Virus record (IMG/VR): IMGVR_UViG_3300032116_000004
Location: 248,001-312,000 of that record
Source: a virus
Length of the DNA stretch: 64,000 nt
Strand: one strand, 5' to 3'
The number at the start of each line of letters is the position of its first letter. The first letter of the stretch is position 1. Below, in pieces: positions 1 to 19,448 of the stretch. A program made the translations under genes and the position numbers. Below the pieces are notes generated by a model that was not told the DNA's origin, did not search any database, and was given only the letters and a program-made list of their open reading frames with translations.

Positions 1-804
1 CAGGGCATACCTATTCCCCCCTTGACTCCTAGAGATTGGCAAATCACCCTCGGACAAAAACTGCTACGTATGTTGTCAATACCCGAACTCGATGATGTTT
101 GTGATCTTTACAAAGATCAAGTGGTGAATCCTCACGACAATGATCAAAATTTAAATGATAATCAAAATTTCGATGAGAATTGCACGCTGAATGGTGCCAG
201 TGCCAGCTGCATAGTTCGGGTTGGCAGAGACATATTTTTTGACAATTCAGAATTTTTAAAACCAGAACAGAGTCGATGGATCGTTGAAAATCTACTAGGA
301 CCAGAATATCGTATACACGAAGCTGTCACTGATGGGCACGGGGATGCTGTGTTTGCCATCCTCAAACCTGGAGTTATATTAAGTAGCAAGCACGATAGCA
401 ATTTAGATTTCGGCAGAGATTTTCCCGGTTGGGAAGTGTGCAAGGTTTGGGATAGCTCAATTTGGGCAGCCATGGAGGTTGGCAAGTTCAAAGAAGATAA
501 CTTTAACGGCCGCTGGTATGTGCAAGGTCAAACACCCACCGAAGAATTCACGAAATTCGTAGATGAATATCTCAACAAATGGACGGGATTTGTGAGTGAA
601 ACAGTGTTTGATGTTAACTGTCTGGTGCTAGACGAATCACATGTAATCTTCTCGGCATACAACAAACCAGTATTTGATTTCTGTAAACAGCATAAAATTG
701 AACCTATCATCTCGGAATTGCGTCACAGCTATTTCTGGGATGGGGGTGTTAGCTGTTGCACACAAGACATCCGGCGACGCGGTGGCTTAGAGACTTATCT
801 CTAG
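1..804 (+). CDS. Glycine-amidinotransferase-like enzyme (5' partial)
   Basis: The reading frame is open to the left edge of the window, so the true start lies upstream and the TTG at 22 is probably internal. The visible N-terminus has the PPLTPRDW segment typical of arginine:glycine amidinotransferases. A middle DGHGDAVF block followed by KPGVIL corresponds to the catalytic His region (HxD-A-x-F..PG in the family). The C-terminus, GGVSCCTQDIRRRG then LETYL, closely resembles the active-site Cys loop of the family (GGxxCxTxDxRRRG); the first Cys of the CC pair aligns with the nucleophile. Family members move an amidino group from arginine to an amine through a Cys-amidino intermediate. It is the only plus-strand gene of the island and converges on the carbamoyltransferase, the two stop codons sharing one CTAG. 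The substrate is unknown: glycine, another amine, an aminosugar or a modified base are all possible. Confidence 0.82.
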   Translation, partial: QGIPIPPLTPRDWQITLGQKLLRMLSIPELDDVCDLYKDQVVNPHDNDQNLNDNQNFDENCTLNGASASCIVRVGRDIFFDNSEFLKPEQSRWIVENLLGPEYRIHEAVTDGHGDAVFAILKPGVILSSKHDSNLDFGRDFPGWEVCKVWDSSIWAAMEVGKFKEDNFNGRWYVQGQTPTEEFTKFVDEYLNKWTGFVSETVFDVNCLVLDESHVIFSAYNKPVFDFCKQHKIEPIISELRHSYFWDGGVSCCTQDIRRRGGLETYL

Positions 805-2288
805 TTGCAAACTTTTACACCGTATAGTTTTTCAAACCGATCAGCATCGTCTCTATCATTGACCATAGGCTCACCGCGTATGTTTAGACTGGTGTTAAGC
901 AACATAGGACATCCTGTTTCTACATACCAACGTTCTAACAGTTCTCGTATACCTGACCCACAGTCCTTGCTTACTGTTTGAACACGACTGGTCTTATCTA
1001 CATGTATGATAGCAGGAAAATGATCCGGATGGCGACAACGTGCTACCACTTGCATGTAAGGGCTACTGGTATATCCTTGGGGCATCTCAAAATAATCGTT
1101 GACACATTCTTCTAGTATCACAGGTGCAAACGGTCTAAACTGTTGTCTGCGTTTGATCGCATTGACTTTCTCCTTGATCTCGCTGCCTCTAGGGTCTGCA
1201 AGGAGGCTACGGTTTCCGAGTGCGCGGGGACCGAACTCAGCTCTGCCGGAGGCAACTCCCACAATCTGTTCATTAAGTAGCCGAGCCACAAGCTCATCAA
1301 CAGGATAAGGGCCAGGTATATTATACCCAAGATAAGGACTGGTCCAGTTAACTCTATGCCCATGAGCCAAAGCGGCAGCACCAAGGCTGCTACCAGCATC
1401 ACCAGGATTAGGCATGATCCAAATATTTTCATAGATGTCTCCAAGATTTCTATTGGCTAAACAGTTGAGAGCAACACCTCCCATGTATACAAGATTGGTT
1501 TCGCCTGTGAGTTCGCGAGCTTTTTTCATTACACTCATTATGAGATCTTCAGCCACTAACTGCGTAGCGCACGCAATATCTTCATTGGTAGCCGATTCTA
1601 AAAATGTTGAGTCAACTCCTATATGGAAGTTTTCATTGAGTTCAATGCTGTTGTAGTCTTTGATCACGCGATTGCTCAAGGCTTGGTACCACGTATCTCG
1701 ACCCCAGGCGGCCATGCCCATAGTAATGTATTCTTCGTCCATGGGTTTTAGTCCCACACGATCAGTCATGGCGCTGTAGAATAATCCAATTGAGTGTGGA
1801 TACATTTGGCGCCATAGTCTCTGGTATTGTGCCCGACCCTTGTTGTTGTAACATGCACGATAGATGCTAACAGTATCTAACTCACCAATGGCATCTATAA
1901 CAACAACTACTGCACGGTCAAATGGTGATGTTTGAAAACCTGCGGCTGCATGGCTGAGATGATGGCTGGTGCTGACTTCGTTACGAGCCGGATTTTGATA
2001 CCAAGACCCGAGATGCTTTTTCAATGCACCGCGTGTGGTCCAAGGGCCAAAGTTGCGTTGCCCAGAAAATATCTGCTGTATGTTGTGCATCCATGGATGT
2101 TCATAGAACGCCACTGTATCGTATTCCCACTCACACAGTTCTTTGAGCAGTCCAGGAGCAATAGTAGGATCGTTTTTCTTTTTACTATATCGTTCTGAGT
2201 GGCCGGCAAAAACTATTTCACCATCTGACCTGATGACAGTGGCTGCCGCATCATGGAACCCTGCACTGATACCAAGTATGTGTTTCAT
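801..2288 (-). CDS. Carbamoyltransferase (NodU/CmcH/TobZ family)
   Basis: A 495-residue protein with full-length family architecture. The N-terminal Kae1/YgjD-like ASKHA domain starts MKHILGISAGFHDAAA and carries the metal-binding HHLSHA motif near residues 108-113. GGVALN near 269 and a C-terminal YrdC-like half with GRAEFGPRALGNRS, FRPFAP and LLNTSLN are also present. Such enzymes use carbamoyl phosphate and ATP to make carbamoyl-AMP and transfer the carbamoyl group to a hydroxyl on a sugar, an antibiotic or, in some phages, a hydroxymethylated base. Its ATG overlaps the stop of the 33-residue peptide gene as ATGA, so it is probably translated by coupling from that gene's strong ribosome site. 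It is the last gene of the minus-strand island. The fold assignment is firm; the acceptor is unknown. Confidence 0.93.
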   Translation of the reverse strand: MKHILGISAGFHDAAATVIRSDGEIVFAGHSERYSKKKNDPTIAPGLLKELCEWEYDTVAFYEHPWMHNIQQIFSGQRNFGPWTTRGALKKHLGSWYQNPARNEVSTSHHLSHAAAGFQTSPFDRAVVVVIDAIGELDTVSIYRACYNNKGRAQYQRLWRQMYPHSIGLFYSAMTDRVGLKPMDEEYITMGMAAWGRDTWYQALSNRVIKDYNSIELNENFHIGVDSTFLESATNEDIACATQLVAEDLIMSVMKKARELTGETNLVYMGGVALNCLANRNLGDIYENIWIMPNPGDAGSSLGAAALAHGHRVNWTSPYLGYNIPGPYPVDELVARLLNEQIVGVASGRAEFGPRALGNRSLLADPRGSEIKEKVNAIKRRQQFRPFAPVILEECVNDYFEMPQGYTSSPYMQVVARCRHPDHFPAIIHVDKTSRVQTVSKDCGSGIRELLERWYVETGCPMLLNTSLNIRGEPMVNDRDDADRFEKLYGVKVCN

Positions 2289-2386
2289 TTATAGATAAAC
2301 GGATCTCTTTTGCGTAACTCTTTTAGTTTTTTGCGATAGCGTATTTCAAGTTTGATCCGGTTGATCAAGTTTGTTAACCATTTCAT
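2285..2386 (-). CDS. Small basic peptide (33 aa)
   Basis: A short ORF beginning MKWLTNLINRIKLEIRY and ending RKRDPFIYK. It is preceded by a perfect AGGAGG with a five-base A spacer, the best ribosome site in the island. Twelve of 33 residues are Lys or Arg against three acidic ones. The hydrophobic residues are spaced as in an amphipathic helix. Its first 41 bases lie inside the 3' end of the upstream 374-residue gene in another frame, and its TGA stop overlaps the ATG of the carbamoyltransferase. From memory, near-identical peptides occur in other marine T4-like phages; this needs a search. Function unknown. A structural or membrane-associated helix, a translational-coupling leader, or a modification substrate are all possible. 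Confidence 0.75.
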   Translation of the reverse strand: MKWLTNLINRIKLEIRYRKKLKELRKRDPFIYK

Positions 2387-3470
2387 TTTTTCCTCCTATG
2401 ATTTGTATCTGTCGAGTTTGATAATCAGGATCACTCCAGCAATAGTCATAGACACATTCGGCATCACTGGTTTTAACTCTGTAGACATCTAGATGAGTAT
2501 TTAAACGGCTCCATATGGATTGATAATCATTTGTCCAAAAGGTATCAATGAGATCCACTTGACCGATTTGCGGATGCCCAATAGTTAAACTTTTGTCATT
2601 GGGATCAAATCCATTCACTGTTAGCCATTCACGGAACTCTTGTAATCTTATCTTTTGCCATTCGTAGTTGCCAGGATTGTTAGCCCACTCTATATCAAAG
2701 TCTCCTGCTGCCTCAGTCTGGCTACGCATGGTAGTTGAAATTAACTCACCCACACGACTGTCACGTCCTTCATCCTGGAACACTTCCCAATGATGTTTGC
2801 CCACTGCTTTGTTCACACCTACAAATACTCCGCCTATGGGTCGATTGATAGTTTCTATACCAAACAGCTCGTAGTCTTTTTCGTCTAACACAAATCTTGG
2901 TGCATTAAGCCAACACATCAGTTGACTGGGCCTTTGCCAAGCGGGCGCTTCAATCTGTTTTCGATAACTGAGAGCCCAAGATTCAAATTCGTGACACAAT
3001 AAATTCAATTGCCGGATATGCCAGCGTGTGGCAGCATTAGCTTTTAGATAGTATTCTTTGGGAGAGCCGCTGACACCTTGTAAATCTTCAAAATATCTAT
3101 GCAACCAGTTGAACTTGTCATGTATGATATTGCGACCGGCTGCGCGACCATCTATAGGTGTATCTGTGATACAATTCGCCATATCAAAATAGTCGTCGAT
3201 GTGATAACCAAGATTGGCTTGATTGATTGCCGCTATACTGAGATTGACCTGCTCTAGTATATAGGAACCGTTGCGAGCATGATCGACAAACCCAAAGAAA
3301 CAATAGTTTTTTTCTAGATGATAATCTTTCCGCAATAGATCATTGAGTGCTGACAGCCATTTATGACTGAGAGAGTTATCATAGATGTCCACATATACTG
3401 GCAGTAGATCGCCAGTATGACGATTTTGTAGATCAATCTGCAATCTATCTAATATCTTGCCACCAATCAT
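2346..3470 (-). CDS. Conserved phage-type protein of unknown function
   Basis: A soluble protein of 374 residues from the chosen start (MIGGKILDRLQ). I chose this ATG because AGGA lies five bases upstream and it cuts the overlap with the preceding radical SAM gene to 26 bases; the frame stays open to an ATG at 3521, which would add 17 residues. Visible segments include SHKWLSALNDLLRKDYHLEK with NYCFFGF after it, CITDTPIDGRAAGRN, and a C-terminal part rich in Trp and Tyr. No signal peptide, membrane segment or catalytic motif was recognised. It sits directly downstream of four tandem radical SAM genes, so a partner or substrate role is conceivable. No function can be assigned. Confidence 0.75.
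   Translation of the reverse strand: MIGGKILDRLQIDLQNRHTGDLLPVYVDIYDNSLSHKWLSALNDLLRKDYHLEKNYCFFGFVDHARNGSYILEQVNLSIAAINQANLGYHIDDYFDMANCITDTPIDGRAAGRNIIHDKFNWLHRYFEDLQGVSGSPKEYYLKANAATRWHIRQLNLLCHEFESWALSYRKQIEAPAWQRPSQLMCWLNAPRFVLDEKDYELFGIETINRPIGGVFVGVNKAVGKHHWEVFQDEGRDSRVGELISTTMRSQTEAAGDFDIEWANNPGNYEWQKIRLQEFREWLTVNGFDPNDKSLTIGHPQIGQVDLIDTFWTNDYQSIWSRLNTHLDVYRVKTSDAECVYDYCWSDPDYQTRQIQIIGGKNEMVNKLDQPDQT
2392..2397 (-). promoter_or_regulatory. Consensus Shine-Dalgarno of the 33-aa peptide gene
   Basis: AGGAGG on the minus strand, five bases before the ATG at 2386. Most neighbouring genes start inside the preceding gene with weak or no Shine-Dalgarno, so this full consensus stands out and supports the short ORF being real. 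Confidence 0.8.
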
Positions 3471-4731
3471 ACATGTCCTGATTTTGTTGTAATATATGTG
3501 CCATGGTATATTGATCACCACGTATCTTTTCTAGTTCTAAAATCCTGCGCTTGCCTTTGATCAATCCTGCTTGATATTGATCAGGCCATTGTTCCGCAAA
3601 CGTGGGTCTTTGCTTGAGTTGTAGTAAAACATCTCGTAGTGCGCCACGTGTGGCAGGCACTATCTCATCCACTTTGCGATGTAATATTTCTCTAGGCAAT
3701 GCCAGCGGACTCATTAAAATGTCCGGAGTAAAACTAAACACAACTTTGGCCAAGATGTCAACACCTAGTTCATCGGCTGTGCGTTGCATCGACTCAACTT
3801 CAAACAAACCTGGCAGAGTCAAAGTAAAGTCCAATCGCATCTGTCTGCGATGTCGTGCGATTTCTAGGCCACGTTTAAAGTTTTCTAAAAATACGGGCCA
3901 GGCCAAACCGGTTCTGATGTATTCTCCGATGGGTCCTGTTCCATCGATGCTTGCACAGATTTGGAAGTCTCGTATATTTGCCAGCAAATCACGATAAAGA
4001 CTAATCCCATTATAATCCACGCGGCTAAGGTTGGTATTGTATCTTGCATAAAGTCTTGGGCCATCACCCAGTTCAATGATTCTTTTCATATAGCGCCAAT
4101 GCTGTTCATACATCAGCGGCTCTCCGCCCACCCAATAGATTTCTTCTACACGATGTTCTTCTACTGCTTGAGCAAACTCTGCTTCTACCTGTGTGTCCTG
4201 GAACTGTATGATTTCACGTTTGACATCAGGCCGCATCCAGTTGTTTTTGGGATTTGACCAGTCTACCATGTCGTGTTTTTTCTCTTCAGTTTCCCAAGAG
4301 CTGGAAAGCATGTCTCCGCACATGCGACATTTAAAGTTGCAAAGATTACTAAATCTGTAGTCCCAGCTCACTGGTTTCAGTGTGGTTACACCGTCGGGTG
4401 TGGTGGCTGCCATGGCTTCCTCATACTTGTGACCAAACAGTCCCCAAAAGTAACTGCGATAGACATCTGTATTCAATAACTTCTCATTGCACACCGCACA
4501 CTCTGGCAAGGTCTCTCCGGCCATCATGCGCCGTCTCACAGATTTCATGTGTTCACTGTTCCAATGTTCATCCAGTGTGATGGGAATATAACGTCCGCTG
4601 CCGGCGGCTGTGTCTATATACTGTTCAAAGTTCTGTGCAGGCTCACGACTGGCACAACACATCCTCCTCTCGGTCTGTGGCGAGAGATATGTGTGTGTCC
4701 ACGGAGCCATGCACAGTGTTTCAGACTTCAT
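3445..4731 (-). CDS. Twitch/SPASM-type radical SAM protein A1
   Basis: A 428-residue radical SAM enzyme. Unlike classical SPASM proteins, the auxiliary-cluster-like cysteines lie N-terminal to the core: C7 in CMAPW, C25-C26, then C78-x2-C81. The radical SAM CxxxCxxC is C131-NFK-C135-RM-C138, after DYRFSNL. A GGEPL segment (SAM binding) and an ASIDGTGPIGEYIR strand follow. Proteins like this reductively cleave SAM to a 5'-deoxyadenosyl radical; most known relatives with extra clusters modify peptides or sugars. It overlaps the next gene upstream by 11 bases and ends IRGDQYTMAHIL..WWQDIR, a variant of the R-x-x-x-F....P tail shared by its paralogues. The substrate is unknown. Confidence 0.9.
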   Translation of the reverse strand: MKSETLCMAPWTHTYLSPQTERRMCCASREPAQNFEQYIDTAAGSGRYIPITLDEHWNSEHMKSVRRRMMAGETLPECAVCNEKLLNTDVYRSYFWGLFGHKYEEAMAATTPDGVTTLKPVSWDYRFSNLCNFKCRMCGDMLSSSWETEEKKHDMVDWSNPKNNWMRPDVKREIIQFQDTQVEAEFAQAVEEHRVEEIYWVGGEPLMYEQHWRYMKRIIELGDGPRLYARYNTNLSRVDYNGISLYRDLLANIRDFQICASIDGTGPIGEYIRTGLAWPVFLENFKRGLEIARHRRQMRLDFTLTLPGLFEVESMQRTADELGVDILAKVVFSFTPDILMSPLALPREILHRKVDEIVPATRGALRDVLLQLKQRPTFAEQWPDQYQAGLIKGKRRILELEKIRGDQYTMAHILQQNQDMYDWWQDIR

Positions 4732-5932
4732 AATCTATCACTCGTGCTAACTCCGGCGCTATCTGTGAAAGGTTCTGACGACGCCTTAGATCTAGATCTT
4801 TTATCTTTATCTTCAAAAGATTTCCATCAGTGCTGGCACCATTGATCATGAAATCTACCACGCGATCAAACTCAGATCGGAATGACTCGGGCACCCATTC
4901 ACTTGACAATCTCTGTCGAACTGCCTGTTTAGCACGTTCGGGCAGGTTAGCAATACTGAAATAATAAGGATCATGCAACATGTTCCAGTAGACAAAATCA
5001 AACTTTTGACGATCGATCCATTGTGCCACGTCTGACAGATACATCACGTTGAACGCATTGATGGTGCAACACACCTGTAGAGTGATGTTTGAAATCCTAG
5101 ATCTCATCTGTCGGAACAGTTCGATATTGTGATTGATTTCCGACCAGCCAGCATTGCTACGTTGATATTCAAATCTCTCACCTACGTCATCCACAGAAAA
5201 AGCGATTTCAACATGCCGGAAATGGCACCAGATGTCTTCGGCTTCTTCGGGATATTGTGTGCCGTTGGTGTTGTAGTGTATTTCAATTTGATGAGCATAT
5301 CCACGGTCTACCAGGCGGCGCAGTAGATCAAAATGCTCTCGGATCATGAAAGGTTCGCCACCAGTGAACTCAATGTATCGGACTTGGGCCATGGCCGAAT
5401 CCAGTTCGTGCCAAAACTGCTCGCTGTTGCGCGGCCATGCTCCATCACGTAACATTTGATAATGGAAACTTTTCTTTTTATCTTCTCTATCAACAATAAA
5501 GTTCAACTCTTCTGAAGCAAAAGTCGACGAAGACCATGAACCACAGATGCGGCATTTGAGATTACAGATATTACCTAATTTGAGATCCAAAAACATCAAA
5601 GGTTTAGCATCTGCTGTCCAATTGTCAGAAATGCCCATATGTTTGAGCCTATCTAGAGTATGCATCCTTTTACTGGTACGACCGGCACGTTCTTCTTGCC
5701 AACATCTACGACAGGTCTGTGGTTGCTGGCCATCTAAAAACTGCTGACGCAGATTTTTTAGATGTTGGCTGTTCTGTATCTGGTCAAAGGTAGAGTTTGT
5801 AAGTTGGAATTTTTTCCCTTGATCATCTACTATCTCGTCCATGGCCAAACAGCAAGGTCTCACTGTGCCTATGGGACTGGTTTCTAAGCTAACCCACGGT
5901 AACACACAGAATTTCTCGTGTGGTATTTTCAT
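4721..5932 (-). CDS. Twitch/SPASM-type radical SAM protein A2
   Basis: 403 residues with the same layout as its neighbours. C9 lies in FCVLPW, C27-C28 in RPCC, and a CRRCWQEE pair near residue 75; the radical SAM motif CNLKCRIC is near residues 122-129 after LDLKLGNI. GGEPF and a FSVDDVGERFEYQR segment follow. The C-terminus reads LRRRQNLSQIAPELARV, a form of the tail motif also seen in A3. It overlaps A1 by 11 bases and A3 by four (ATGA-type), implying co-expression and translational coupling. Of the tandem four it most resembles the rSAM between gp47 and gp46 (both have LDLKxxN and FSxDxVGxxFExQR). The substrate is unknown. Confidence 0.9.
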   Translation of the reverse strand: MKIPHEKFCVLPWVSLETSPIGTVRPCCLAMDEIVDDQGKKFQLTNSTFDQIQNSQHLKNLRQQFLDGQQPQTCRRCWQEERAGRTSKRMHTLDRLKHMGISDNWTADAKPLMFLDLKLGNICNLKCRICGSWSSSTFASEELNFIVDREDKKKSFHYQMLRDGAWPRNSEQFWHELDSAMAQVRYIEFTGGEPFMIREHFDLLRRLVDRGYAHQIEIHYNTNGTQYPEEAEDIWCHFRHVEIAFSVDDVGERFEYQRSNAGWSEINHNIELFRQMRSRISNITLQVCCTINAFNVMYLSDVAQWIDRQKFDFVYWNMLHDPYYFSIANLPERAKQAVRQRLSSEWVPESFRSEFDRVVDFMINGASTDGNLLKIKIKDLDLRRRQNLSQIAPELARVIDYEV

Positions 5933-10944: not shown

Positions 10945-11867
10945 TTTTGTTTATACCATTGGATTGTGATATCTATACCCTGTGATAAATTATATTTTGG
11001 TTGCCACCCCATGGATTTTATTTTACTGTTGTCTAAAGTTCTAACAATAGTAGCTGTTGGTTTTGTGATATCCCATTGTATATCCCCTGCAAAACCAGAT
11101 AAGTGCTTTACTAGATCGGCGGCAGTCTTAAGGTTAACTGGATTACCGGCAGAAAGATTTATTGGCTCACTGGCAGAATAATTTTGCATACAAAAAATAC
11201 AAGCGTCGGCAGCGTCGTCCACAAACATAAAATCTCTTACCTGACTTCCATCTCCCCAAAGAGATACTGCGGCGTCTTGACGTTTGACAGCATTGACAAA
11301 TTTGCTTATAAAATCACTCATGACATGAGATTTGACATTATCAAAAGTATCGTTAGGCCCGTAAAGGTTACCGGGCATCACTGTGATAAAATCACATCCC
11401 CATTGTTTTCTAAAATACTGAGCCATTTTGATCCCAGCAATTTTTGCCACGGCGTAGGCTTCGCTAATTGGTTCTAAATATCCAGATAAAAGTTGATCTT
11501 CAGTGATAGGTATTTGACAGTCTTTGGGATAGGCAGAACTACTACCAGTAAACAAAAGTTTTTTACACTGATATTTGCGAGACACATCAAAAACATTGTT
11601 TTGTATTTCTAAGTTATACAGCATTGTTTCTCCCCAATCCTGACTCAAAAGTCCTATCAACTTAGCCGCTACTAAAAATACATACTCTGGCCTATGCCGA
11701 TTGAACCAAGCATCGACCTGTGTTTTATTTCTCAGATCTAATTCTTCGGGACTAGGATATAGTATGTTAGTATATCCTTGTGATCGTAATTGTCTCACTA
11801 TAGCCGATCCAAGGTGTCCACGAAATCCACCTGCTACAAATATTTTAGACTGTTTTTCCATGTTCAT
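10932..11867 (-). CDS. fcl: GDP-L-fucose synthase-like epimerase/reductase
   Basis: 311 residues, an extended short-chain dehydrogenase. The Rossmann motif GFRGHLG spans residues 14-20 and the catalytic pair is Y138-x3-K142 (EAYAVAK). EPEELDL-like and MPGNLYGPNDTF segments are diagnostic of the GDP-fucose synthase (Fcl/WcaG) family. The family turns GDP-4-keto-6-deoxymannose into GDP-fucose by 3,5-epimerisation and NADPH reduction. Here the conserved GSSCIYP segment reads GSSSAYP, so the Cys that serves in epimerisation in E. coli Fcl is Ser, while a downstream SHVM His is kept. It may therefore act mainly as a reductase or make a different deoxysugar. Four-base overlap with the kinase gene indicates coupling. 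Alternative: the reductase of a GDP-6-deoxyheptose route. Confidence 0.85.
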   Translation of the reverse strand: MNMEKQSKIFVAGGFRGHLGSAIVRQLRSQGYTNILYPSPEELDLRNKTQVDAWFNRHRPEYVFLVAAKLIGLLSQDWGETMLYNLEIQNNVFDVSRKYQCKKLLFTGSSSAYPKDCQIPITEDQLLSGYLEPISEAYAVAKIAGIKMAQYFRKQWGCDFITVMPGNLYGPNDTFDNVKSHVMSDFISKFVNAVKRQDAAVSLWGDGSQVRDFMFVDDAADACIFCMQNYSASEPINLSAGNPVNLKTAADLVKHLSGFAGDIQWDITKPTATIVRTLDNSKIKSMGWQPKYNLSQGIDITIQWYKQNCLS

Positions 11868-12859
11868 CTGTCCTGATTGTCGTAATAAATTATCTGACTA
11901 CCTAGATATTCAAATAAAATTGGCACACTGGTCAATCCTAGTGCCTCTTCAACTTTTTGTTTGGCATCCAGCGGTGTGACAAAAAGCATAAATCCACCAC
12001 CGCCTGCCCCCAACAACTTACCTCCCAGAGCTCCTGCTGTTAGAGCACGATCATATATTTCATCAATTTTCTGATTGGTCGATTCGGGCTGTATTGCCTT
12101 TTTTAGAATCCATTGTTCGTTTAGAGCCTCGGCAAAGTCTGTCAGTCTGTTTTGATTTGCATCAAACAATATACTCTGCGCTCGATCAGTTAAAGCATTC
12201 ATATCCTGCAATTTTTTTTCTTGTTGCCCAAGTAAAGCAATAGTTTTTTTCGCTAACTGACCGCTCTCTCTGCAATCTTGTGTATGAAACATCTGCATTG
12301 ATGATTCCAATTCTCGGTGTATGCCAGAATCAAGTATCAAGGGATTGACCGTAAAATCTTGATGTCCACCAAAATTGATTTTATTGAAACCACCAAATGC
12401 GGCGGCCACCTGATCTTGGCTACCCACATCTTGTTTCAAAACTTTCTGCTCGATATACAAGGCATCTAATGCTAACTGACGTTTAGTCTTGAGTTGATTA
12501 GTCAAGGTATAGAGACCGTGTAGAAGACCTACTGTGAAACTACTGCTAGAACCTATGCCTGTGCGATTAGGCAAATCTCCGTGATGTGTAATATCGATAC
12601 CAAAATCAATATTACAAAACTTCAAACATTCTCTGATCACAGGAATAGATATTTCATCTATGGAATTGGTTTCTTGTACCTCATAATATCTTATGCGATA
12701 TTTGTAATCAAACACTTGAGGCAATTTCCTAATAACAATAAAACTATATTTGTTAATAGTGGTGCTGATTACTGATCCCGGATGATACTCATACCAATCT
12801 GGATAGTCGGTCATGCCTCCGAAAAAACTTACTCTATAAGGAGTTCTAACTATGATCAT
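11864..12859 (-). CDS. GHMP-family sugar kinase (HddA-like)
   Basis: 331 residues with all three GHMP signatures. Motif 1 is RTPYRVSFFGGMTDYP at the N-terminus, motif 2 is LPNRTGIGSSSSFTVGLL (ATP phosphate loop), and motif 3 is LLGAGGGGFMLF near the C-terminus. The closest pattern I know is D-glycero-D-manno-heptose-7-phosphate kinase (HddA) and related sugar-1-kinases of polysaccharide clusters. It would phosphorylate the anomeric carbon of a sugar before guanylyl transfer. No guanylyltransferase was found in the window, so a host enzyme or a gene outside would be needed. It overlaps its neighbours by four bases on both sides and is markedly AT-rich compared with the radical SAM genes. Confidence 0.85.
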   Translation of the reverse strand: MIIVRTPYRVSFFGGMTDYPDWYEYHPGSVISTTINKYSFIVIRKLPQVFDYKYRIRYYEVQETNSIDEISIPVIRECLKFCNIDFGIDITHHGDLPNRTGIGSSSSFTVGLLHGLYTLTNQLKTKRQLALDALYIEQKVLKQDVGSQDQVAAAFGGFNKINFGGHQDFTVNPLILDSGIHRELESSMQMFHTQDCRESGQLAKKTIALLGQQEKKLQDMNALTDRAQSILFDANQNRLTDFAEALNEQWILKKAIQPESTNQKIDEIYDRALTAGALGGKLLGAGGGGFMLFVTPLDAKQKVEEALGLTSVPILFEYLGSQIIYYDNQDR

Positions 12860-13869
12860 CTTATCAAATAATTTTTATTGATCTCGTTAACCTTCTCTCG
12901 CCAATGGTCTAGTAGATCTTGCATGGTCCGATCAAAGGTAATTTCCGGTTTCCATCCAGTATGCTTACGAAATTTTTCTGTGTTTGGTATCTGGAGATCT
13001 GCATCTATTGGACGCAATCGGTCAAGGTCGACTTCTACCCGTATGCTGTCCTGACAGGCACTTAATGATATTAACTTATCAAGGATATCCTGCACTCGGC
13101 ATACATGCGTGCCTCCTATGTTGTAATATTCTCCAGGGACAGGATTTACGGTAACAAGCATAAGATAAGCTCGCACAGCATCTCTGACATCAGCAACAGT
13201 CCGTAAACTATCAAGATTGCCCACCTTGACAACAGGTTCTATTTTACCTTTTTCAATCATAGCGATCTGTTTGGCAAAAGATGATTCAGCAAACACATCT
13301 CCGCGACGCGGACCGGTATGTGTGAACATTCTAGTGGTCATGACTTTTAATCCGTATGCTTCGGCATAAAATCTTCCCAACAAGTCTGTACCAACCTTGC
13401 TAATAGCATATGGCGAGGCTGGATGAAAAGTGCAATTTTCATCTATAGGAAGTTTTTCTTTAGGAACTCGACCAAATACTTCTGAACTAGCACAAACATG
13501 TATTATTGCGTCAGGACAGTGAATTTTACATGCTTCTAACAATCTTGCTGTGCCTTGGATGTTAGTGTTAAGAGTTTCTACAGGACTATCAAAACTAGTC
13601 TTTGGAAAACTTTGTGCCGCAAGGTGGAAAACATAATCGGGCTTTGAATTTTTTATGATTTTTTGCAATGACGGATCATCATTTAAATCACCATACTCGA
13701 GCATGATGCGTTTTTTTTGATTTATATCGGGGATCAAATGATTGATGTTGTCAAGAGGACTCCGCCATCTTATTACACCAACAATATTCCAGTCAGTTTC
13801 TTTAAGGATCAGATCGGCTAGATGGCTTCCGACCATGCCTGTGATTCCGGTGATAAGTGCAGTAGTCAT
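12856..13869 (-). CDS. gmd: GDP-mannose 4,6-dehydratase-like enzyme
   Basis: 337 residues, an extended short-chain dehydrogenase. G8-x2-G11-x2-G14 binds NAD(P). S128-S129-E130 (CASSEVFG) and Y154-x3-K158 (SPYAISK) form the catalytic set expected for a dehydratase, with Glu as the base. TRMFTHTGPRRGDVF and RPIDADLQIPNTEKFR fit the GDP-mannose dehydratase/GDP-6-deoxymannose group. It would make GDP-4-keto-6-deoxymannose, the substrate of the adjacent fcl-like enzyme. The pair therefore gives a two-step route to GDP-fucose, or to a 6-deoxyheptose if the kinase handles heptose. An RmD-type reductase is a less likely alternative. Its start overlaps nothing: 21 AT-rich bases separate it from the upstream radical SAM gene. 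Confidence 0.85.
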   Translation of the reverse strand: MTTALITGITGMVGSHLADLILKETDWNIVGVIRWRSPLDNINHLIPDINQKKRIMLEYGDLNDDPSLQKIIKNSKPDYVFHLAAQSFPKTSFDSPVETLNTNIQGTARLLEACKIHCPDAIIHVCASSEVFGRVPKEKLPIDENCTFHPASPYAISKVGTDLLGRFYAEAYGLKVMTTRMFTHTGPRRGDVFAESSFAKQIAMIEKGKIEPVVKVGNLDSLRTVADVRDAVRAYLMLVTVNPVPGEYYNIGGTHVCRVQDILDKLISLSACQDSIRVEVDLDRLRPIDADLQIPNTEKFRKHTGWKPEITFDRTMQDLLDHWREKVNEINKNYLIR

Positions 13870-13890
13870 TTTGCTTGGTTAATATATAAT

Positions 13891-15339
13891 TTATTGTTTG
13901 ATTAATTGCTTGGCTAGATATCCACAATCGGCCCACCATTCGACCATTTCTGGGAATACTTTGAGAAATCTCGTGCCGCGGCGTCGGTCATGTTCATCGA
14001 AAAATCGGAACCAATCCGCACGCTGACGGCGCACATAATCAGGATCTAGTTTCTTTCCTTCTCGCATCCACGCGATGTCTCTATCCAATCTCTGTAGTTC
14101 GTAATCTTTAAAGCCTTTGAATCGTCGTTCTTCGGTTTCGAGATTTTTCATCATGAAAACCCAAACTTCTTCCAGTTTGTCTGCGTAACTTTCGGGCAAG
14201 ATCTGCAGGCTCTGCCAGGCTGGATTTCTCAACACAGGAGTATCGAACCAAACACGCTGATAAGTGTTAGAATAGATCTGTCTTAATCCCAACATCCCTA
14301 CCATGAGTTCCTGGAAACTAGTCACTGACAAGTTGTTCATGGTTATGATAAATGTGATGGAACTGCGATGTGGTATTTCAGTGAGGAATTGATTCACACG
14401 ATCCCATAACAGGGCAAAATCCATACCATGCCGTATATACTCGGCACGGTCCATCCAAGCATCAAGGCTCACATACTGCATGAAATGCTCCACACGCTCG
14501 TTGTCGCAGATCATTTTCACATAACCTTTGTAGCGTTGCCAAAGACGTTCGTCGGCACAGAAGTTTGATGTTACATTAAGATGCAGTCGCGGATTGTGAT
14601 GAGCCATCACATAGTCAAACACTTTATAAGTGTTCTTGTCCATCATAGGCTCGCCGCCGGTCATACGGAAATGTTCTAGTTCCGGATACAGCGCAGGCCA
14701 CCACTGCCAAAATGCTTCAAGATAGGGATTGTGTTCACGAAAAGGTATGGGTTTGCGATCTCCTTGGAAGTAAGCAGGATCGTTATGAGGTGTAGCAGTG
14801 GGCCAGGCGCCGTGACGTTCTGCTTCTTCCATCCAGGACGTAGAAAATTGTGGACTGCAATAACTACATTTGAGATTGCAAACAGAATTGAAATTGACTT
14901 CCACATAACTAGGAGTGACATCTTGGTCCCATGGCGCGGTCACTATCTTTTCAAAATCACGAGCCGCCCAGGGTTCTCCGGATCTGTAATGACGATCCGA
15001 CATTTCTCCGAGATCTTCCATGTTCCAACAATACTGACATTCGCCCGGGCGTGTGCCTTCTAACATCAATCGGCGTTGCTGTTTTTTGTGTTCAGTATTG
15101 TGGATACCCGATGGACTGCGTTGTATGTCCTCGATGCGTATTTTGTGCAACGGAGGATGATAGCAGGAATTGGTATGGCCAGTGGTGAGATGTAAACTGA
15201 CTTGTTTCCACTTGGCCAAACAAAGACTAGAACTTACAGTATCGAGTTTTTGTTTGATTATTTCTGCATCACTTAAGAATTTTGACTTGAAGTCTTGTAA
15301 TACTTCATCGCCTTTGTTTTGTTCAGACAATATTGACAA
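13891..15339 (-). CDS. Twitch/SPASM-type radical SAM protein B2
   Basis: 482 residues, paralogue of the gene at 7169-8527. They share AKW, TTGHTNSCYHPPLHK versus GSGMTTSCHHPLPHK, IHNTEHKKQQRR, a CQYCWNMEDLG pair, a SDRHYR segment and a C-terminal DRRRGTRFLKVFPEMVEWW. The radical SAM motif CNLKCSYC is near residues 152-159, followed by SPQFSTSW and MTGGEPMM. A roughly 40-residue hydrophilic N-terminal extension precedes the first Cys. It overlaps the upstream TEKTxKP gene by 17 bases. Each TEKTxKP gene is thus close to a radical SAM gene (8517 beside B1, 15323 beside B2), suggesting matched pairs of modifier and transferase. Substrate unknown. Confidence 0.88.
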   Translation of the reverse strand: MSILSEQNKGDEVLQDFKSKFLSDAEIIKQKLDTVSSSLCLAKWKQVSLHLTTGHTNSCYHPPLHKIRIEDIQRSPSGIHNTEHKKQQRRLMLEGTRPGECQYCWNMEDLGEMSDRHYRSGEPWAARDFEKIVTAPWDQDVTPSYVEVNFNSVCNLKCSYCSPQFSTSWMEEAERHGAWPTATPHNDPAYFQGDRKPIPFREHNPYLEAFWQWWPALYPELEHFRMTGGEPMMDKNTYKVFDYVMAHHNPRLHLNVTSNFCADERLWQRYKGYVKMICDNERVEHFMQYVSLDAWMDRAEYIRHGMDFALLWDRVNQFLTEIPHRSSITFIITMNNLSVTSFQELMVGMLGLRQIYSNTYQRVWFDTPVLRNPAWQSLQILPESYADKLEEVWVFMMKNLETEERRFKGFKDYELQRLDRDIAWMREGKKLDPDYVRRQRADWFRFFDEHDRRRGTRFLKVFPEMVEWWADCGYLAKQLIKQ

Positions 15340-16273
15340 TCTCCGTTGAATACTTTTGATCTAGCAGAAGATTGTAGTTATGATCTAGAATAGATTGCAT
15401 ATCCTGATACATGTGATACAATTCTGACTTAGATTTTTTGACCAAGTCATCAATGAGTTTTAGTGTTGATTGCAATCTATCTTTGGTATCAAACCCATCA
15501 TAGTCTTCGTTCCAAAAATTCCAAAATGTCTTAAACCCCATCTGCCGTAGATACTCTAGATAATTCCGGCTGGCAAAAACAATAAATGGTTTTTTCATCC
15601 ACATCGGTCTAAAAGTCTTTTCGGTAGCATAAAAAGTTTCCCCTGACACATGTGATTCAACTACCACATCAACTAGAATATTTTTATAGTAATTTGTCAG
15701 CGGATCTGAAAAATCATAACCTTCACTGTCAGTGTATCTATCTGGACTAGACAACAACAAAGGAAGATCATCAATCAACACACTGGCGTCTTTGACACTT
15801 TCAATGCGATAAGATAATAGTTTGTCAAATTCAAAATGCACCAAATCATCCACACCGGTATTAGCCGAGAAATGTATCAGGCTTTTACGGCCGTGATAGC
15901 GTCTTAAATGTCCTGCAATAGCCAGTCGAGCCGCTGTGGGTCTCCCAAACAATGCATAGAAGACATGCGTTTGATCCCAAGAATGCATGCTGTTATCTAT
16001 GGATTCAATTTTTTTTGGCCAGTGATTTTCTAAAAATTTTATATGATAATAAGGATGTGATTCCAATGGATTGGCCGTGATAACAGTAACATTTTTATGT
16101 TCCATGGATTCTAATAATCGATAAACTCCCAAAGTTTTCATGCTCACAGCTTCGGGGGCCACAGTAATCTCAATCGGAAGACCTTGATTAGCAAACAAAA
16201 ATCTAACAAATTCATCTTTGTTCCAAAACTTATCACTGGTTGCAAGGATCTGGAAAGATACTGTCATTACCAC
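15323..16273 (-). CDS. Fucosyltransferase-like TEKTxKP family protein 3
   Basis: 316 residues and third paralogue. The diagnostic C-terminal block is VVVESHVSGETFYATEKTF then RPMWMKKPFIVFAS (TEKT near residue 219), followed by YLRQMGFKTFWNFWNEDYDG and DRLQSTLKLIDDL. The C-terminal halves align with the other two over GF-x-TF...E-x-YD...R, while the N-terminal halves differ. It lies between radical SAM B2 and a GT-A-like gene with short overlaps. The predicted role is a cytoplasmic glycosyl transfer from a nucleotide sugar; the acceptor and even the activity are unproven. Confidence 0.62.
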   Translation of the reverse strand: MVMTVSFQILATSDKFWNKDEFVRFLFANQGLPIEITVAPEAVSMKTLGVYRLLESMEHKNVTVITANPLESHPYYHIKFLENHWPKKIESIDNSMHSWDQTHVFYALFGRPTAARLAIAGHLRRYHGRKSLIHFSANTGVDDLVHFEFDKLLSYRIESVKDASVLIDDLPLLLSSPDRYTDSEGYDFSDPLTNYYKNILVDVVVESHVSGETFYATEKTFRPMWMKKPFIVFASRNYLEYLRQMGFKTFWNFWNEDYDGFDTKDRLQSTLKLIDDLVKKSKSELYHMYQDMQSILDHNYNLLLDQKYSTEIVNIV

Positions 16274-17196
16274 CCCTCTTGTCGTCGGATCACATCAATC
16301 TCACGTGTCATTACGCCGAGATTCTGCCAGTTAGATCTGTAATGATCCTTGAAAAATGCGCTCTGGAACGGGGGCATGAACGCCATGGGTAATCCCAATT
16401 GTGTGCTCAATGGATCGGTATAAAAATCAATCACCCCTGCTGGGTCTTGTTCAGCCACTGTGGATTCCCATATCGTTTTTAGAGTATCAAACCACTGCAC
16501 TTCTCGATAGTCCCAGTCAGAAAGCATGGTCATGTATGTGCCTTGACGGGCACCGGCTATGGCCCAAAATCCATTTTCAACATCGCAGCCTATGTTGTGC
16601 CATATCGTGAGATGATCGAAATTGCGTTTATGCACACGATCCTTGAATTCACTCACTGTGGGACGGCGCCCACGATCCAGGCACATCTTGACGCCTTCTC
16701 GGAACCCTGCACGCCAGGCATGGAATGGTGATCCATTGGGATAGGTTGTTGAATAGCAATCATGCATGGGCCAATACAGTGGATCAAAGCAGAATTCTAC
16801 CACTGTTTCGTCTCGCCCATCTGTGGATTCATGGGTTTTCATGTTGAGAACGAAATCTCGGGTCCACGAACTCAACCCACCGTTGCCATACATCAGACCA
16901 TTGACATGATTGCGAGCACGCCACCGCAACACAGCACGCTCCCATGATTCATCTGGAAATTCCAGTGTGAGATTGAAAAAGTTTTCTTGGGGAAGATTGT
17001 CTCCATCTATCAAGATGAAACGCTCGGTTTCTGATGCGTCGGCTGCGGCCTTGTGTGCGGCATCTGATCCTTTGACGCTGTCCACACGTTTGGCCCAGGG
17101 GACCATGTTGCGTATTTTGACCCAAAATTCTTCTTTGAGAGGCTCGTCATAGGACAGGTAGACGACGTCAAGATCTGCTATATCAACTTTCTTCAT
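16267..17196 (-). CDS. GT-A-like glycosyltransferase, DGDN type
   Basis: 309 residues. The N-terminus reads LDVVYLSYDEPLKEEFW, then PWAKRVDSVKGSDAAHKAA and RFILIDGDNLPQENFF. The IDGDN segment occupies the place of a GT-A DxD metal and sugar-nucleotide motif. A middle FDPLYWPMHDCYSTTYPNGS segment and HNIGCDVENGFW follow. Proteins with this SYDEP...DGDN pattern occur in marine T4-like phages and are usually left unnamed. No membrane segment is seen. It overlaps its neighbours by seven and 14 bases. It could transfer the second sugar of a glycan built together with the two other GT-A-like enzymes nearby. Confidence 0.65.
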   Translation of the reverse strand: MKKVDIADLDVVYLSYDEPLKEEFWVKIRNMVPWAKRVDSVKGSDAAHKAAADASETERFILIDGDNLPQENFFNLTLEFPDESWERAVLRWRARNHVNGLMYGNGGLSSWTRDFVLNMKTHESTDGRDETVVEFCFDPLYWPMHDCYSTTYPNGSPFHAWRAGFREGVKMCLDRGRRPTVSEFKDRVHKRNFDHLTIWHNIGCDVENGFWAIAGARQGTYMTMLSDWDYREVQWFDTLKTIWESTVAEQDPAGVIDFYTDPLSTQLGLPMAFMPPFQSAFFKDHYRSNWQNLGVMTREIDVIRRQEGW

Positions 17197-17530
17197 TGGT
17201 CACGGTTACTTTCCAAAATTTCTTTTGAGTATAGGTGGTTGGCACAACGATACAAACATCGTCGGCATGGCAAGCATATTCGCCATGATCTGCTGGTGCC
17301 AATCGCCAACTGCTCTGTTGTGTTATTTTAATCAATTTTCCATCGCGCACTTTGAGATCCATGCGCACTTGTTCAAAGGTATGACGATCCACTACAATGT
17401 ATGTGCCAGGAAGATCTTCCATGGAATAGCAAGTGATGGTTCCGGAATCGTCATAGTAGATGCGGAATTCGGCTCGATTTTCGGGCACGGTCCAATCATG
17501 CTGTGTGGCGGCTTGCCAAAAGGCATCCAT
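17183..17530 (-). CDS. Unknown protein between glycosyltransferase genes
   Basis: 115 residues beginning MDAFWQAATQHDWTVPENRA. GAGGAG lies four bases before the ATG, a strong ribosome site that fixes the start even though the gene begins 35 bases inside the preceding one. It contains FRIYYDDSGTITCYSMEDLP, TYIVVDRHTF and a C-terminal YACHADDVCIVVP. The first half looks like a small beta-rich domain (two hairpins). Not recognised as any named family. Its fixed place between two GT-like genes suggests an accessory or scaffold role in the same process. Confidence 0.7.
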   Translation of the reverse strand: MDAFWQAATQHDWTVPENRAEFRIYYDDSGTITCYSMEDLPGTYIVVDRHTFEQVRMDLKVRDGKLIKITQQSSWRLAPADHGEYACHADDVCIVVPTTYTQKKFWKVTVTNEES

Positions 17531-18335
17531 AATGCTCCTCCAATTCTAGTGCCAGGGGTTTGTGATGATAATGCACAACCCCATGCTGTTCTATGGTGTT
17601 GATGCGCAGTCTTCCATCTACCAATTCGTAGACAAATTCGTCGGTCCATGGGCGTGCGTCTGTCTTGAGATAGTTGACTGCGGGCTTCATGTGTATCATG
17701 CTGGGCCATGCGTCGGGCAAAGTCACAAGATCCTCGCCCATATACTTGGCCGCCATGGCATAGATCATATCAGTGTTGGCAGGAATGCTATCACAATATT
17801 TCAATGTTTTACGAGCCTCGGGCCACTTTTCAAACAGCACACGCACCAGTTCAAAAAATTCCGATGCCGTGCGACTCAATCTCCAATATGTGATGGCATT
17901 GTAGAGATCTGGAAGATCATTGTCGTCCCAGTGTCTACGATAAGCGCGGCAATCACTGACGTTGTTGAGATAGTTACGCATACCACGACTGACTACGACA
18001 TCTCGATGTTCGAACCAAGACCACCAATGGTCGATGGATCCGTTGACTATCATATCAGATTCGAGTTTGATCGTTTCGCGGAATGGAGAAGCATGGAATG
18101 CTTGCCAGTCGTTGGCCAACTTCCATGTGTCGTTGGCAGCTTGATCTCCATGAGGGAAAGGTTTGATGATATCAAACACCGGATCTGATTCTTCGGCGTC
18201 TGTGACCAAACATATCCTACAATCTGGCATCCACCAACGTAGGCTCTTGGCCAGTGCTCGAGCACAGGCTACGTAGTCATCGCGACCGTTGTTGCTGGCT
18301 ATGATTAGATATCCACGTTCAAATAGCACTGGCAC
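17496..18335 (-). CDS. GT-A-like glycosyltransferase, ESD type
   Basis: 279 residues. It opens GYLIIASNNGRDDYVACARA, a nucleotide-sugar-binding first strand and helix, followed by RICLVTDA. KLESDMIV near residue 92 supplies a DxD-like (E-S-D) motif, and a C-terminal HGVVHYHHKPL carries the His usually closing the GT-A metal site. The YNAITYWRLSRTASEFF segment resembles the acceptor loop in GT8-like enzymes. It is followed by a related gene with the same opening (LLFAFNN.RVDYV). Cytoplasmic; donor and acceptor unknown. Confidence 0.7.
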   Translation of the reverse strand: MPVLFERGYLIIASNNGRDDYVACARALAKSLRWWMPDCRICLVTDAEESDPVFDIIKPFPHGDQAANDTWKLANDWQAFHASPFRETIKLESDMIVNGSIDHWWSWFEHRDVVVSRGMRNYLNNVSDCRAYRRHWDDNDLPDLYNAITYWRLSRTASEFFELVRVLFEKWPEARKTLKYCDSIPANTDMIYAMAAKYMGEDLVTLPDAWPSMIHMKPAVNYLKTDARPWTDEFVYELVDGRLRINTIEQHGVVHYHHKPLALELEEHYGCLLASRHTA

Positions 18336-19140
18336 AGATTTTCCCCAGATCAGGTTTGTTCATGACATGGAGATCACAATCCTCCAATAACATGCGTTGG
18401 TGACGCTCTTGATTATCAACCATCCTCACATAGTTCAGTTGGAATCTATCGGGCTCCAATTGATTCAAATACACATCATAAAAACTGGTAAACAAAGGCC
18501 ACGGAATGCTGGGTATAGAATCCTCGACGTGCCCATAAACAGTGTTGAGAGCGATGCTGATAGCGTAGTCATTGCGATAGAGATCTTGGCTGAATTTATA
18601 GATGCGACTGTAATGATACCAGTTATCTTCGATCATGTGCATCATCTCAAACACAGATTGTGCCAACGCACTCTTCCGGAAATACAGTACCGTGGCCCAC
18701 CACATGGGCATTTCTACCGATCCAAATCTAGTATCGGCAGCAAAGTTCCTGCGTTCTGTGACATCTAACACATAACGATGGCATAAAATATCTTGATCGG
18801 TTTCAAACAGGATTTTCAGTCTATCTGAAGCAACGATATAATCTGTATCAAGCACCAAGGTCTGATCATAAGGACTCAAATCATAGGCCCTGCATCTACC
18901 TCGATTGAACCATGTGGCTGATGAATCCGCATTCATATGATCGTATTTGCGTGTGCCTCCACTGCGACTTTCGGCCGTGATCACTTGATCAAACATCGTG
19001 ACATCGTTGGGCGCTGAATCAGTGATCAATGTGACTGGTAATCCAAGATGTCTGTTGATCCTGGGTGCGGACCATTGTGCTTGTTGCACATAATCCACAC
19101 GATCATTGTTGAACGCGAATAATAGAACGCCTTGAGTCAT
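18319..19140 (-). CDS. GT-A-like glycosyltransferase, LDTDY type
   Basis: 273 residues from the chosen ATG at 19140, which overlaps the upstream stop as ATGA; the frame stays open for 19 more codons upstream, inside that gene. It opens GVLLFAFNNDRVDYVQQA, then LPVTLITDS. YDQTLVLDTDYIV has a clear DxD motif at the end of a hydrophobic strand, as in GT-A enzymes. MPMWWATVLYFRKSALAQ and NDYAISIALN correspond to the acceptor-side elements of GT8-like folds. It is a divergent paralogue of the following gene (17496-18335). Role inferred as glycan building in the modification island. Confidence 0.72.
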   Translation of the reverse strand: MTQGVLLFAFNNDRVDYVQQAQWSAPRINRHLGLPVTLITDSAPNDVTMFDQVITAESRSGGTRKYDHMNADSSATWFNRGRCRAYDLSPYDQTLVLDTDYIVASDRLKILFETDQDILCHRYVLDVTERRNFAADTRFGSVEMPMWWATVLYFRKSALAQSVFEMMHMIEDNWYHYSRIYKFSQDLYRNDYAISIALNTVYGHVEDSIPSIPWPLFTSFYDVYLNQLEPDRFQLNYVRMVDNQERHQRMLLEDCDLHVMNKPDLGKICASAI

Positions 19141-19448
19141 CGTTGTTGAGATAATTGTTGATGCTCGATCAACCAAGCCGTCATCTGCTCCTGCCAACGA
19201 TCATGCGCCAGGTGCTGTAATTCCAACACATTGATCTGCACAGGAGTGCCATAAAGATCCTCTATGACTGCGTCTTCAGTGGGACAACTCTGTAACAGGG
19301 CCAAGAGTTCAGGACCTGCCCGCCACATACCGCCGGCAAAGGCAAAGGTCATTTTGGAATGGTATTTTTCTTTCAGCAGGCGTTTCTGCGTGGCATGATC
19401 AAAACGGCTACGGATTTGTTTGACTAGTTGTTCTGGATCCAAGTTCAT
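19137..19448 (-). CDS. Small conserved phage protein, first gene of the island operon
   Basis: 103 residues, all-helical in appearance: MNLDPEQLVKQIRSRFDHAT, then TFAFAGGMWRAGPELLALL and LYGTPVQINVLELQHLAHDR. The short AFAGGMWRAGPELLALL stretch recalls small unnamed T4-like phage proteins. It is the first gene of the minus-strand island and lies directly downstream of a promoter-like sequence, with GGAG one base before the ATG. If that promoter is used the transcript would begin at about the start codon. Function unknown. Confidence 0.7.
   Translation of the reverse strand: MNLDPEQLVKQIRSRFDHATQKRLLKEKYHSKMTFAFAGGMWRAGPELLALLQSCPTEDAVIEDLYGTPVQINVLELQHLAHDRWQEQMTAWLIEHQQLSQQR

What the first reader, a model, noticed from the sequence alone, without database searches (positions are those of the whole stretch)
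1..19448. Dense modification island combining amidino-, carbamoyl-, radical and glycosyl-transfer genes
Seen: about 20 genes with almost no gaps, nearly all on one strand, bounded on one side by a strong terminator and promoter-like sequence. Known: members are an amidinotransferase-like enzyme, a NodU/TobZ carbamoyltransferase, five twitch radical SAM proteins, gmd/fcl/GHMP kinase/cupin genes, three GT10-like and three GT-A-like proteins. Inference: they act together on one target. Such a set would be unusual for a lytic phage and resembles a natural-product or surface-glycan cluster. The target could be a phage virion glycan, host lipopolysaccharide, a peptide, or DNA.
Basis: partly seen in the sequence, partly recalled or inferred. 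Interest (0 to 1): 0.78.

Follow-up and report, generated by a model that had tools for sequence, protein, structure and literature searches.

The report
Conserved sugar-decorating gene island, jumbo phages
A giant bacteria-infecting virus carries a tightly packed set of sugar-building and sugar-modifying genes whose core recurs, in the same order, in dozens of other uncultured giant viruses, so the viruses probably make an unusual decorated sugar of their own, although what the sugar is attached to is not known.

Summary
Window 801-19448 holds 19 minus-strand genes, 99.6% coding, convergent with a plus-strand amidinotransferase that starts 252 bases before the window. The window is part of a 315.8-kb jumbo myophage record. 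The island continues upstream with a dehydratase/epimerase-like gene, a DegT sugar aminotransferase and three more (putative) glycosyltransferase genes. Its core is four or five twitch radical-SAM enzymes, the orphan U391, a NodU/TobZ-type carbamoyltransferase and U534, plus, in about 70% of loci, the amidinotransferase. It recurs in conserved order: of 44 dereplicated loci found through U391, 44 have R1, 41 the carbamoyltransferase and 42 U534.

Corrections: the 'gmd/fcl/GHMP' block resembles GDP-6-deoxyheptose more than GDP-fucose enzymes and is a low-GC accessory cassette of this species. The 'GT10-like' proteins form one GT-B-like superfamily, not confirmed as GT10.

Best reading: a cytosolic, phage-specific machine that makes an amino/guanidino-, carbamoyl- and radical-modified sugar, most likely placed on virion fibre proteins encoded next door; host LPS is the main rival. 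Some related islands add a SAM synthetase plus an MTA/SAH-type nucleosidase, which fits active radical-SAM chemistry. No hydroxymethylase for 5hmC/5hmU-type DNA modification was found. The target remains inferred. Looser clusters of this kind are known in T4-like phages.

The parts
1..804 (+). AMT: arginine amidinotransferase-like protein (3' part; full gene is 351 aa, starts 252 bases before the window)
   Evidence: profile A6 against PDB: L-arginine:glycine amidinotransferase 4e-24, HsvA, SxtG, StrB; catalytic-type motifs RVGRD, GHGD, SCCTQDIRR conserved
801..2288 (-). CARB: NodU/TobZ-type O-carbamoyltransferase
   Evidence: Pfam Carbam_trans_C 2.5e-51 and Carbam_trans_N 1.7e-34; 72 viral relatives; dN/dS 0.05-0.08
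2346..3470 (-). U391: orphan conserved island protein (longest ORF to 3521; conserved start near 3470)
   Evidence: no Pfam, PHROG or PDB match; AF2 pLDDT 86.7, no PDB fold; at least 538 viral stretches, 1 cellular contig
3445..4731 (-). R1: twitch radical-SAM enzyme
   Evidence: NF033640 284 bits; present in 44/44 U391 loci
4721..5932 (-). R2: twitch radical-SAM enzyme
   Evidence: NF033640 343 bits
5929..7197 (-). R3: twitch radical-SAM enzyme
   Evidence: NF033640 391 bits
7169..8527 (-). R4: twitch radical-SAM enzyme
   Evidence: NF033640 297 bits
8517..9536 (-). GTa: putative glycosyltransferase of the island's GT-B-like superfamily
   Evidence: homologous to U352 and U417; the U352 model has a GT-B-like fold
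9533..9892 (-). cupin, accessory heptose-type cassette
   Evidence: Cupin_2 1.5e-6; 1/44 loci
9889..10944 (-). GTb: putative glycosyltransferase of the same superfamily, accessory cassette
   Evidence: alignment A5, cross-profile comparison
10932..11867 (-). WcaG/Fcl-like 4-keto-6-deoxy NDP-sugar epimerase/reductase, accessory cassette
   Evidence: best NCBIfam GDPFucSynFcl 315 bits, under its cut-off of 500; PDB 8du0 7e-69
11864..12859 (-). HddA-like sugar kinase (GHMP), accessory cassette
   Evidence: NCBIfam HddA model 2e-36, under cut-off; PDB heptose kinases 6e-31
12856..13869 (-).
   Evidence: PDB 7us5 2.5e-106 against GDP-mannose dehydratases about 1e-39
13891..15339 (-). R5: twitch radical-SAM enzyme
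   Evidence: NF033640 306 bits
15323..16273 (-). GTc: putative glycosyltransferase of the GT-B-like superfamily
   Evidence: cross-profile comparison
16267..17196 (-). U309: GT-A-like candidate, related to the C-terminal part of U534
   Evidence: hhalign 99.4% probability with U534; GT-A by DxD-like motif only
17183..17530 (-). small conserved protein of unknown function
   Evidence: present in a few relatives
17496..18335 (-). GTd: GT-A-like candidate
   Evidence: homologous to GTe (hhalign 98.3%); phrog_1903 1e-5
18319..19197 (-). GTe: GT-A-like candidate
   Evidence: homologous to GTd; DxD-like motif only
19137..19448 (-). small conserved first gene of the island, next to the fibre genes
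   Evidence: same position in L008, L009, L010, L031
19479..19500 (-). terminator-like hairpin between the fibre operon and the island
   Evidence: 9-bp stem plus T-rich tail; hairpins at the same junction in L008 and L009
19520..21936 (-). two neighbouring fibre/virion genes (19520-20497, 20509-21936), candidate substrates
   Evidence: the second has PHROG tail-fibre and virion matches; both adjacent to the island in L005-L010, and the first also in L031

Best explanation
The island is a cytosolic pathway, specific to a group of T4-related jumbo phages, that builds and decorates an unusual sugar. Inferred steps: the dehydratase/epimerase-like protein and the DegT enzyme just upstream of the window make an amino-sugar nucleotide; the amidinotransferase turns its amine into a guanidino group with arginine as donor; five homologous GT-B-like transferases and the U534/U309/GTd/GTe proteins transfer sugars; twitch radical-SAM enzymes alter sugar carbons; the NodU/TobZ-type enzyme adds carbamoyl groups. 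The product is most likely put on the phage's own virion fibre proteins, whose genes lie directly beside the island. In this species a low-GC cassette adds a GDP-6-deoxyheptose-type sugar. Shown: enzyme families, conserved core and order, selection. Inferred: order of reactions, the guanidino-sugar product, the role of U391, and the target.
For: Families. Conserved co-occurrence and order in loci found through two independent anchors. Purifying selection, dN/dS 0.04-0.09 where dS is measurable. Related islands carry a SAM synthetase (MetK, 434 bits, cut-off 309) and, in all 12 such loci, an MTA/SAH-type nucleosidase, i.e. cosubstrate supply and by-product removal for radical-SAM enzymes. Variable tailoring genes in related islands (SGNH/GDSL hydrolase-like, APS kinase-like, weak Stf0 sulfotransferase-like, FkbM methyltransferase) are typical of glycan decoration. 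No island protein has a hydrophobic stretch of transmembrane type (19-aa maximum 1.49), so no flippase or polymerase is encoded. Position next to fibre genes. A radical-SAM/carbamoyltransferase/U534 core kept between phages whose carbamoyltransferases are only about 50-60% identical fits a target carried by the phage better than a fast-changing host surface (inference).
Against: No direct evidence for the target. Co-occurrence changed only a few times on the tree, so linkage could be passive. The radical-SAM family has no known substrate. U391 has no known fold relative. The amidinotransferase is absent from about 30% of loci and its acceptor is unknown. No GmhA-type or NTP_transferase gene for the heptose branch was found in the record. 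Published work on pelagimyophages favours host O-chain modification for similar GT genes (PMC7029224).
Confidence: 0.45

Rival explanations
1. The island modifies host lipopolysaccharide or another surface glycan during infection, so that related phages cannot superinfect or new virions do not stick to debris; cytosolic transferases act on lipid-linked or core intermediates and the host supplies flippase and polymerase.
For: LPS-type clusters in cyanophages and pelagimyophages were read this way (PMC3037559, PMC7029224). A heptose-type cassette and fast-evolving GTs (51-54% identity for GTa against 83-90% for the carbamoyltransferase in the same relatives) fit a host-specific surface sugar.
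Against: No membrane protein, flippase, polymerase or lipid-linked initiating transferase in the island. The invariant core across divergent phages is unlike a fast-changing host target.
Confidence: 0.28
2. The island hypermodifies phage DNA: sugars, carbamoyl and amidino groups are attached to a modified base to block restriction.
For: A phage carbamoyltransferase of the TobZ type carbamoylates 5-hydroxymethylcytosine (PMC8670742), and jumbo-like phage YerA41 has a roughly 1-kDa, oligosaccharide-like group on thymidine (PMC9023294). dCMP-deaminase-like genes occur in some related loci.
Against: No thymidylate-synthase-family hydroxymethylase and no C5 DNA methyltransferase in the 315.8-kb record; Tet_JBP gave nothing, but its control also gave nothing. 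In PMC8670742 carbamoyltransferases of unmodified contigs sat beside unrelated genes such as glycosyltransferases. The record may be incomplete.
Confidence: 0.12
3. The radical-SAM proteins and U391 modify a peptide or protein directly (RiPP-like chemistry on a virion protein), and the sugar genes are a separate neighbouring set.
For: SPASM/twitch radical-SAM enzymes often modify peptides (general knowledge); several in a row with an orphan partner resemble a multi-step maturase; R1-R5 and U391 stay together where sugar genes vary.
Against: No precursor-like gene is conserved inside the core, although ORFs under 110 aa were not clustered. Carbamoyltransferase and U534 stay with the radical-SAM block in 41-42 of 44 loci.
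Confidence: 0.1

Closest known systems
LPS/sugar gene clusters of T4-like cyanophages (P-SSM2, S-SSM7, S-SM2) and host-recognition clusters of pelagimyophages
   Same: Sugar and glycosyltransferase genes in clusters; in pelagimyophages beside tail fibres, with radical-SAM cassettes in some; carbamoyltransferase genes also occur in cyanophages (PMC3037559, PMC7029224).
   Different: There the content is reported as variable; here a core of radical-SAM enzymes, U391, carbamoyltransferase and U534 keeps its order across dozens of phages. U391 and U534 have no match among 50,697 phage records.
Vibrio phage K566/K567 radical-SAM cluster
   Same: Named 255-kb phage with a tight cluster of twitch radical-SAM genes: two over the family cut-off, three more below it.
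   Different: No detectable carbamoyltransferase, amidinotransferase, U391 or island GT profile match there.
Aeromonas phage 332-Vera
   Same: Eight radical-SAM genes inside the structural gene cluster (PMC12390700).
   Different: Assigned to Chimallinviridae in the paper; the passages read describe no island of this make-up.
Marine virus AG-345-D19 contig MH319727
   Same: Amidinotransferase on one strand, carbamoyltransferase and radical-SAM on the other, on one 8-kb contig.
   Different: Short unannotated fragment, 27-51% identity; rest of the island unknown.
Streptomycin-type guanidino and carbamoyl sugar pathways (StrB, DegT aminotransferases, TobZ)
   Same: Same enzyme families: DegT aminotransferase, arginine amidinotransferase, O-carbamoyltransferase.
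   Different: Resemblance of families only; substrates untested, and the partner proteins are phage-specific.

Membership tests
Twitch radical-SAM family NF033640 | score over curated cut-off (170 bits) | tested here: met
   284-391 bits for R1-R5; 12 such genes in the whole record
Twitch radical-SAM family NF033640 | CX3CX2C cluster motif and N-terminal twitch cysteines | tested here: met
   all five island proteins
NodU/TobZ O-carbamoyltransferase | both Carbam_trans N and C domains | tested here: met
   the NodU equivalog cut-off itself is not met (139 against 1000 bits)
Arginine amidinotransferase | family profile match and conserved Cys/His/Asp motifs | tested here: met
   acceptor specificity not testable
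CAZy GT10 fucosyltransferase | match to the family by sequence profile | tested here: not met
   no Pfam match; PDB profile search of U352 family gave nothing relevant
CAZy GT10 fucosyltransferase | GT-B fold like alpha-1,3-fucosyltransferase | tested here: inconclusive
   U352 model pLDDT 90.8 matches GT-B enzymes weakly: SdgB E 3.7e-3, WaaG 6e-3, FucT 2nzw 2.8e-2
GDP-L-fucose pathway (Gmd + Fcl) | equivalog cut-offs for gmd and fcl | tested here: not met
   178 against 415 and 315 against 500 bits
GDP-6-deoxyheptose pathway | heptose-specific dehydratase and kinase plus GmhA and nucleotidyltransferase | tested here: inconclusive
   dehydratase and kinase nearest to heptose enzymes; HddA cut-off not met (126 against 600); SIS_2 and NTP_transferase not found
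T4-like host-recognition / LPS cluster | sugar genes beside tail-fibre genes | tested here: met
T4-like host-recognition / LPS cluster | hypervariable content | tested here: not met
   the core is conserved in 41-44 of 44 loci; accessory content varies
Wzx/Wzy-type surface polysaccharide locus | membrane flippase, polymerase or initiating transferase | tested here: not met
   no transmembrane-type stretch by hydropathy
5hmC-type DNA carbamoylation system | thymidylate-synthase-family hydroxymethylase in the same genome | tested here: not met
   PF00303 absent from the record; the record may be incomplete
RiPP cluster | conserved short precursor gene | not tested
   only unassigned ORFs of 110 aa or more were clustered

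The most novel reading that the evidence does not exclude
A phage-specific, multi-step pathway in which four or five radical-SAM enzymes and a protein with no known fold relative (U391) build a new kind of guanidino- and carbamoyl-bearing sugar for virion proteins, a modification that I found described for no virus.
Probability: 0.3. Interest if true: 0.85.

Novelty: new variant of a known kind. Interest (0 to 1): 0.62.

Why it matters
If right, hundreds of uncultured jumbo phages share an old, phage-owned sugar chemistry that includes radical-SAM steps, with a protein family (U391) found almost only in viruses. It would give substrates to a radical-SAM family that, to my knowledge, has none, offer new glycan-tailoring enzymes, and show that phages invest about 25 kb in decorating something, probably their own fibres, which bears on host range and escape from surface defences.

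Tried and rejected
DNA hypermodification through 5-hydroxymethyl pyrimidines: no PF00303 or PF00145 in the record; the Tet_JBP search was uninformative because its control was empty. GDP-fucose synthesis: rejected in favour of a heptose-type route. Natural-product cluster of cellular origin: the U391 profile found one relative among 84,980 cellular genomes, on a 9-kb MAG contig that may itself be viral. T4 late promoters: TATAAATA absent from the window. PDB profile searches for U352, U391 and U534 gave nothing usable. The U391 fold search gave nothing in PDB and ten uncharacterised phage proteins in BFVD, one from Agrobacterium phage Atu_ph07, though sequence profile A4 does not reach that genome. 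Independent-pairs test of co-occurrence: too few changes on the tree to decide. Literature: no paper found that names twitch radical-SAM proteins with phage or a guanidino sugar in a phage.
Full report
What is there. The window is bases 248001-312000 of a 315,778-base virus record. PHROG matches show a T4-related myophage: late sigma factor, SbcCD, baseplate wedge, tail lysozyme, portal. The portal is about 50% identical to that of the Pseudomonas PA5oct group and of Agrobacterium phage Atu_ph07. The claimed stretch is real: 19 minus-strand ORFs at 801-19448, 99.6% coding, 16 of 18 junctions overlapping, facing a plus-strand amidinotransferase gene cut by the window edge.

Extent. The island continues upstream: the amidinotransferase (351 aa), U417, U352, then U534 on the minus strand, a DegT aminotransferase and a dehydratase/epimerase-like gene. 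DegT scores best against UDP-4-amino-sugar and scyllo-inositol transaminases; the dehydratase/epimerase gene resembles dTDP-glucose 4,6-dehydratase and related enzymes but meets no equivalog cut-off.

Families. R1-R5 are twitch radical-SAM enzymes; the whole record holds 12 over the cut-off, and none of 14 control genomes holds one over it. The carbamoyltransferase has both TobZ-type domains. The amidinotransferase profile matches arginine:glycine amidinotransferase, HsvA, SxtG and StrB, with Cys, His and Asp motifs conserved. GTa, GTb, GTc, U352 and U417 are one superfamily, and the U352 model (pLDDT 90.8) has weak but consistent GT-B matches, among them alpha-1,3-fucosyltransferase. U309 is related to the C-terminal part of U534, and GTd to GTe; their GT-A label rests on DxD-like motifs only.

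The heptose-type cassette. The cassette (9533-13869) has 39.0% G+C against 44-45% for the rest of the island, is missing between R5 and GTa in the close relatives L014 and L016, and occurs in 1 of 44 loci. It is accessory and probably acquired recently. No GmhA-type or NTP_transferase gene was found in the record, so host enzymes would have to fill in, or the assignment is incomplete.

Conservation. A search with the carbamoyltransferase gave 72 viral loci. Their usual order is R5 GTa R4 R3 R2 R1 U391 carbamoyltransferase, facing amidinotransferase U417 U352, with U534, DegT and the epimerase-like gene behind. Among 44 dereplicated loci of at least 17 kb: R1 44, R4 44, R3 43, U534 42, carbamoyltransferase 41, R2 40, R5 40, GTa 33, U352 32, amidinotransferase 30, DegT 30, U417 29. 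These 44 come from the 80 best-scoring loci, so they lean towards close relatives. dN/dS is 0.04-0.09 where dS is not saturated. On a tree of 38 carbamoyltransferases the presence states changed only 3-7 times: the block is mostly inherited together, and statistical independence cannot be claimed.

U391. It has no Pfam, PHROG or PDB relative, a confident model (pLDDT 86.7, pTM 0.85) and no PDB fold match. BFVD gives ten uncharacterised phage proteins. One relative was found among 84,980 cellular genomes. It is a phage protein family of unknown function.

Mechanistic clues from relatives. Unassigned ORFs inside related islands include a SAM synthetase (434 bits, cut-off 309) in 12 loci, all 12 of which also carry an MTA/SAH-type nucleosidase (below its cut-offs); an FAD/NAD oxidoreductase; an SGNH/GDSL-like family in 50 loci; APS-kinase-like, weak sulfotransferase-like and FkbM methyltransferase genes; and a tryptophan-halogenase-family gene. 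SAM supply and by-product removal fit active radical-SAM chemistry (inference from established biochemistry). The 12 loci hold only 4 distinct MetK sequences, so this is probably one clade.

Target. No island protein has a transmembrane-type stretch, so the pathway looks cytosolic and lacks flippase or polymerase. The island lies beside fibre genes, separated by a hairpin. The core is constant while GTs vary. I therefore favour virion fibre protein (0.45), then host surface glycan (0.28), DNA (0.12) and direct peptide modification (0.10). None is shown.

Known work. Clusters of sugar genes are known in cyanophages (PMC3037559) and, with radical-SAM cassettes, beside fibres in pelagimyophages (PMC7029224). 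Eight radical-SAM genes in Aeromonas phage 332-Vera were called highly unusual (PMC12390700). U391 and U534 have no match in 50,697 phage records, and I found no paper describing this island. Hence: a new variant of a known kind.

Noticed in passing
window 49446-50594, 51609-53099, 54869-55492 (+): Three further radical-SAM genes alternate with SbcD and SbcC genes behind the late sigma factor; in PA5oct the corresponding genes appear to stand together without them.
   Followed up: partly
window 56255-56390 (+): Polynucleobacter-1 RNA (RF01718, 113 bits, gathering 37) in the phage, hinting at a freshwater betaproteobacterial host.
   Followed up: no
L004:12410-18602 and L004:17566-17893: Array of about 25 tRNA genes and a tmRNA (tag ANDELYALAA) about 21-28 kb upstream of the window.
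   Followed up: no
L004 and L002, window coordinates about -37400 to -11900: Host-type genes read from translations only: TctA-like and TctC-like transporter parts, PstS-like, peroxiredoxin-like, Gram-negative porin-like, MoxR-like ATPase.
   Followed up: no
window 22757-37264 (-): 4,835-aa virion protein (phrog_10938, 4e-296), its start weakly related to virion proteins of PA5oct-type phages; a possible glycan carrier.
   Followed up: partly
L104:14757-16004 and relatives: Tryptophan-halogenase family gene (306 bits), and an AMP-binding ligase, in some related islands.
   Followed up: no
L046, L048 and ten other loci: Phage-encoded SAM synthetase always together with an MTA/SAH-type nucleosidase inside the radical-SAM island.
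   Followed up: partly
G000:C1 at 21685, 36301, 99701, 124502, 146103: Five more twitch radical-SAM genes over the cut-off scattered in the same genome.
   Followed up: no
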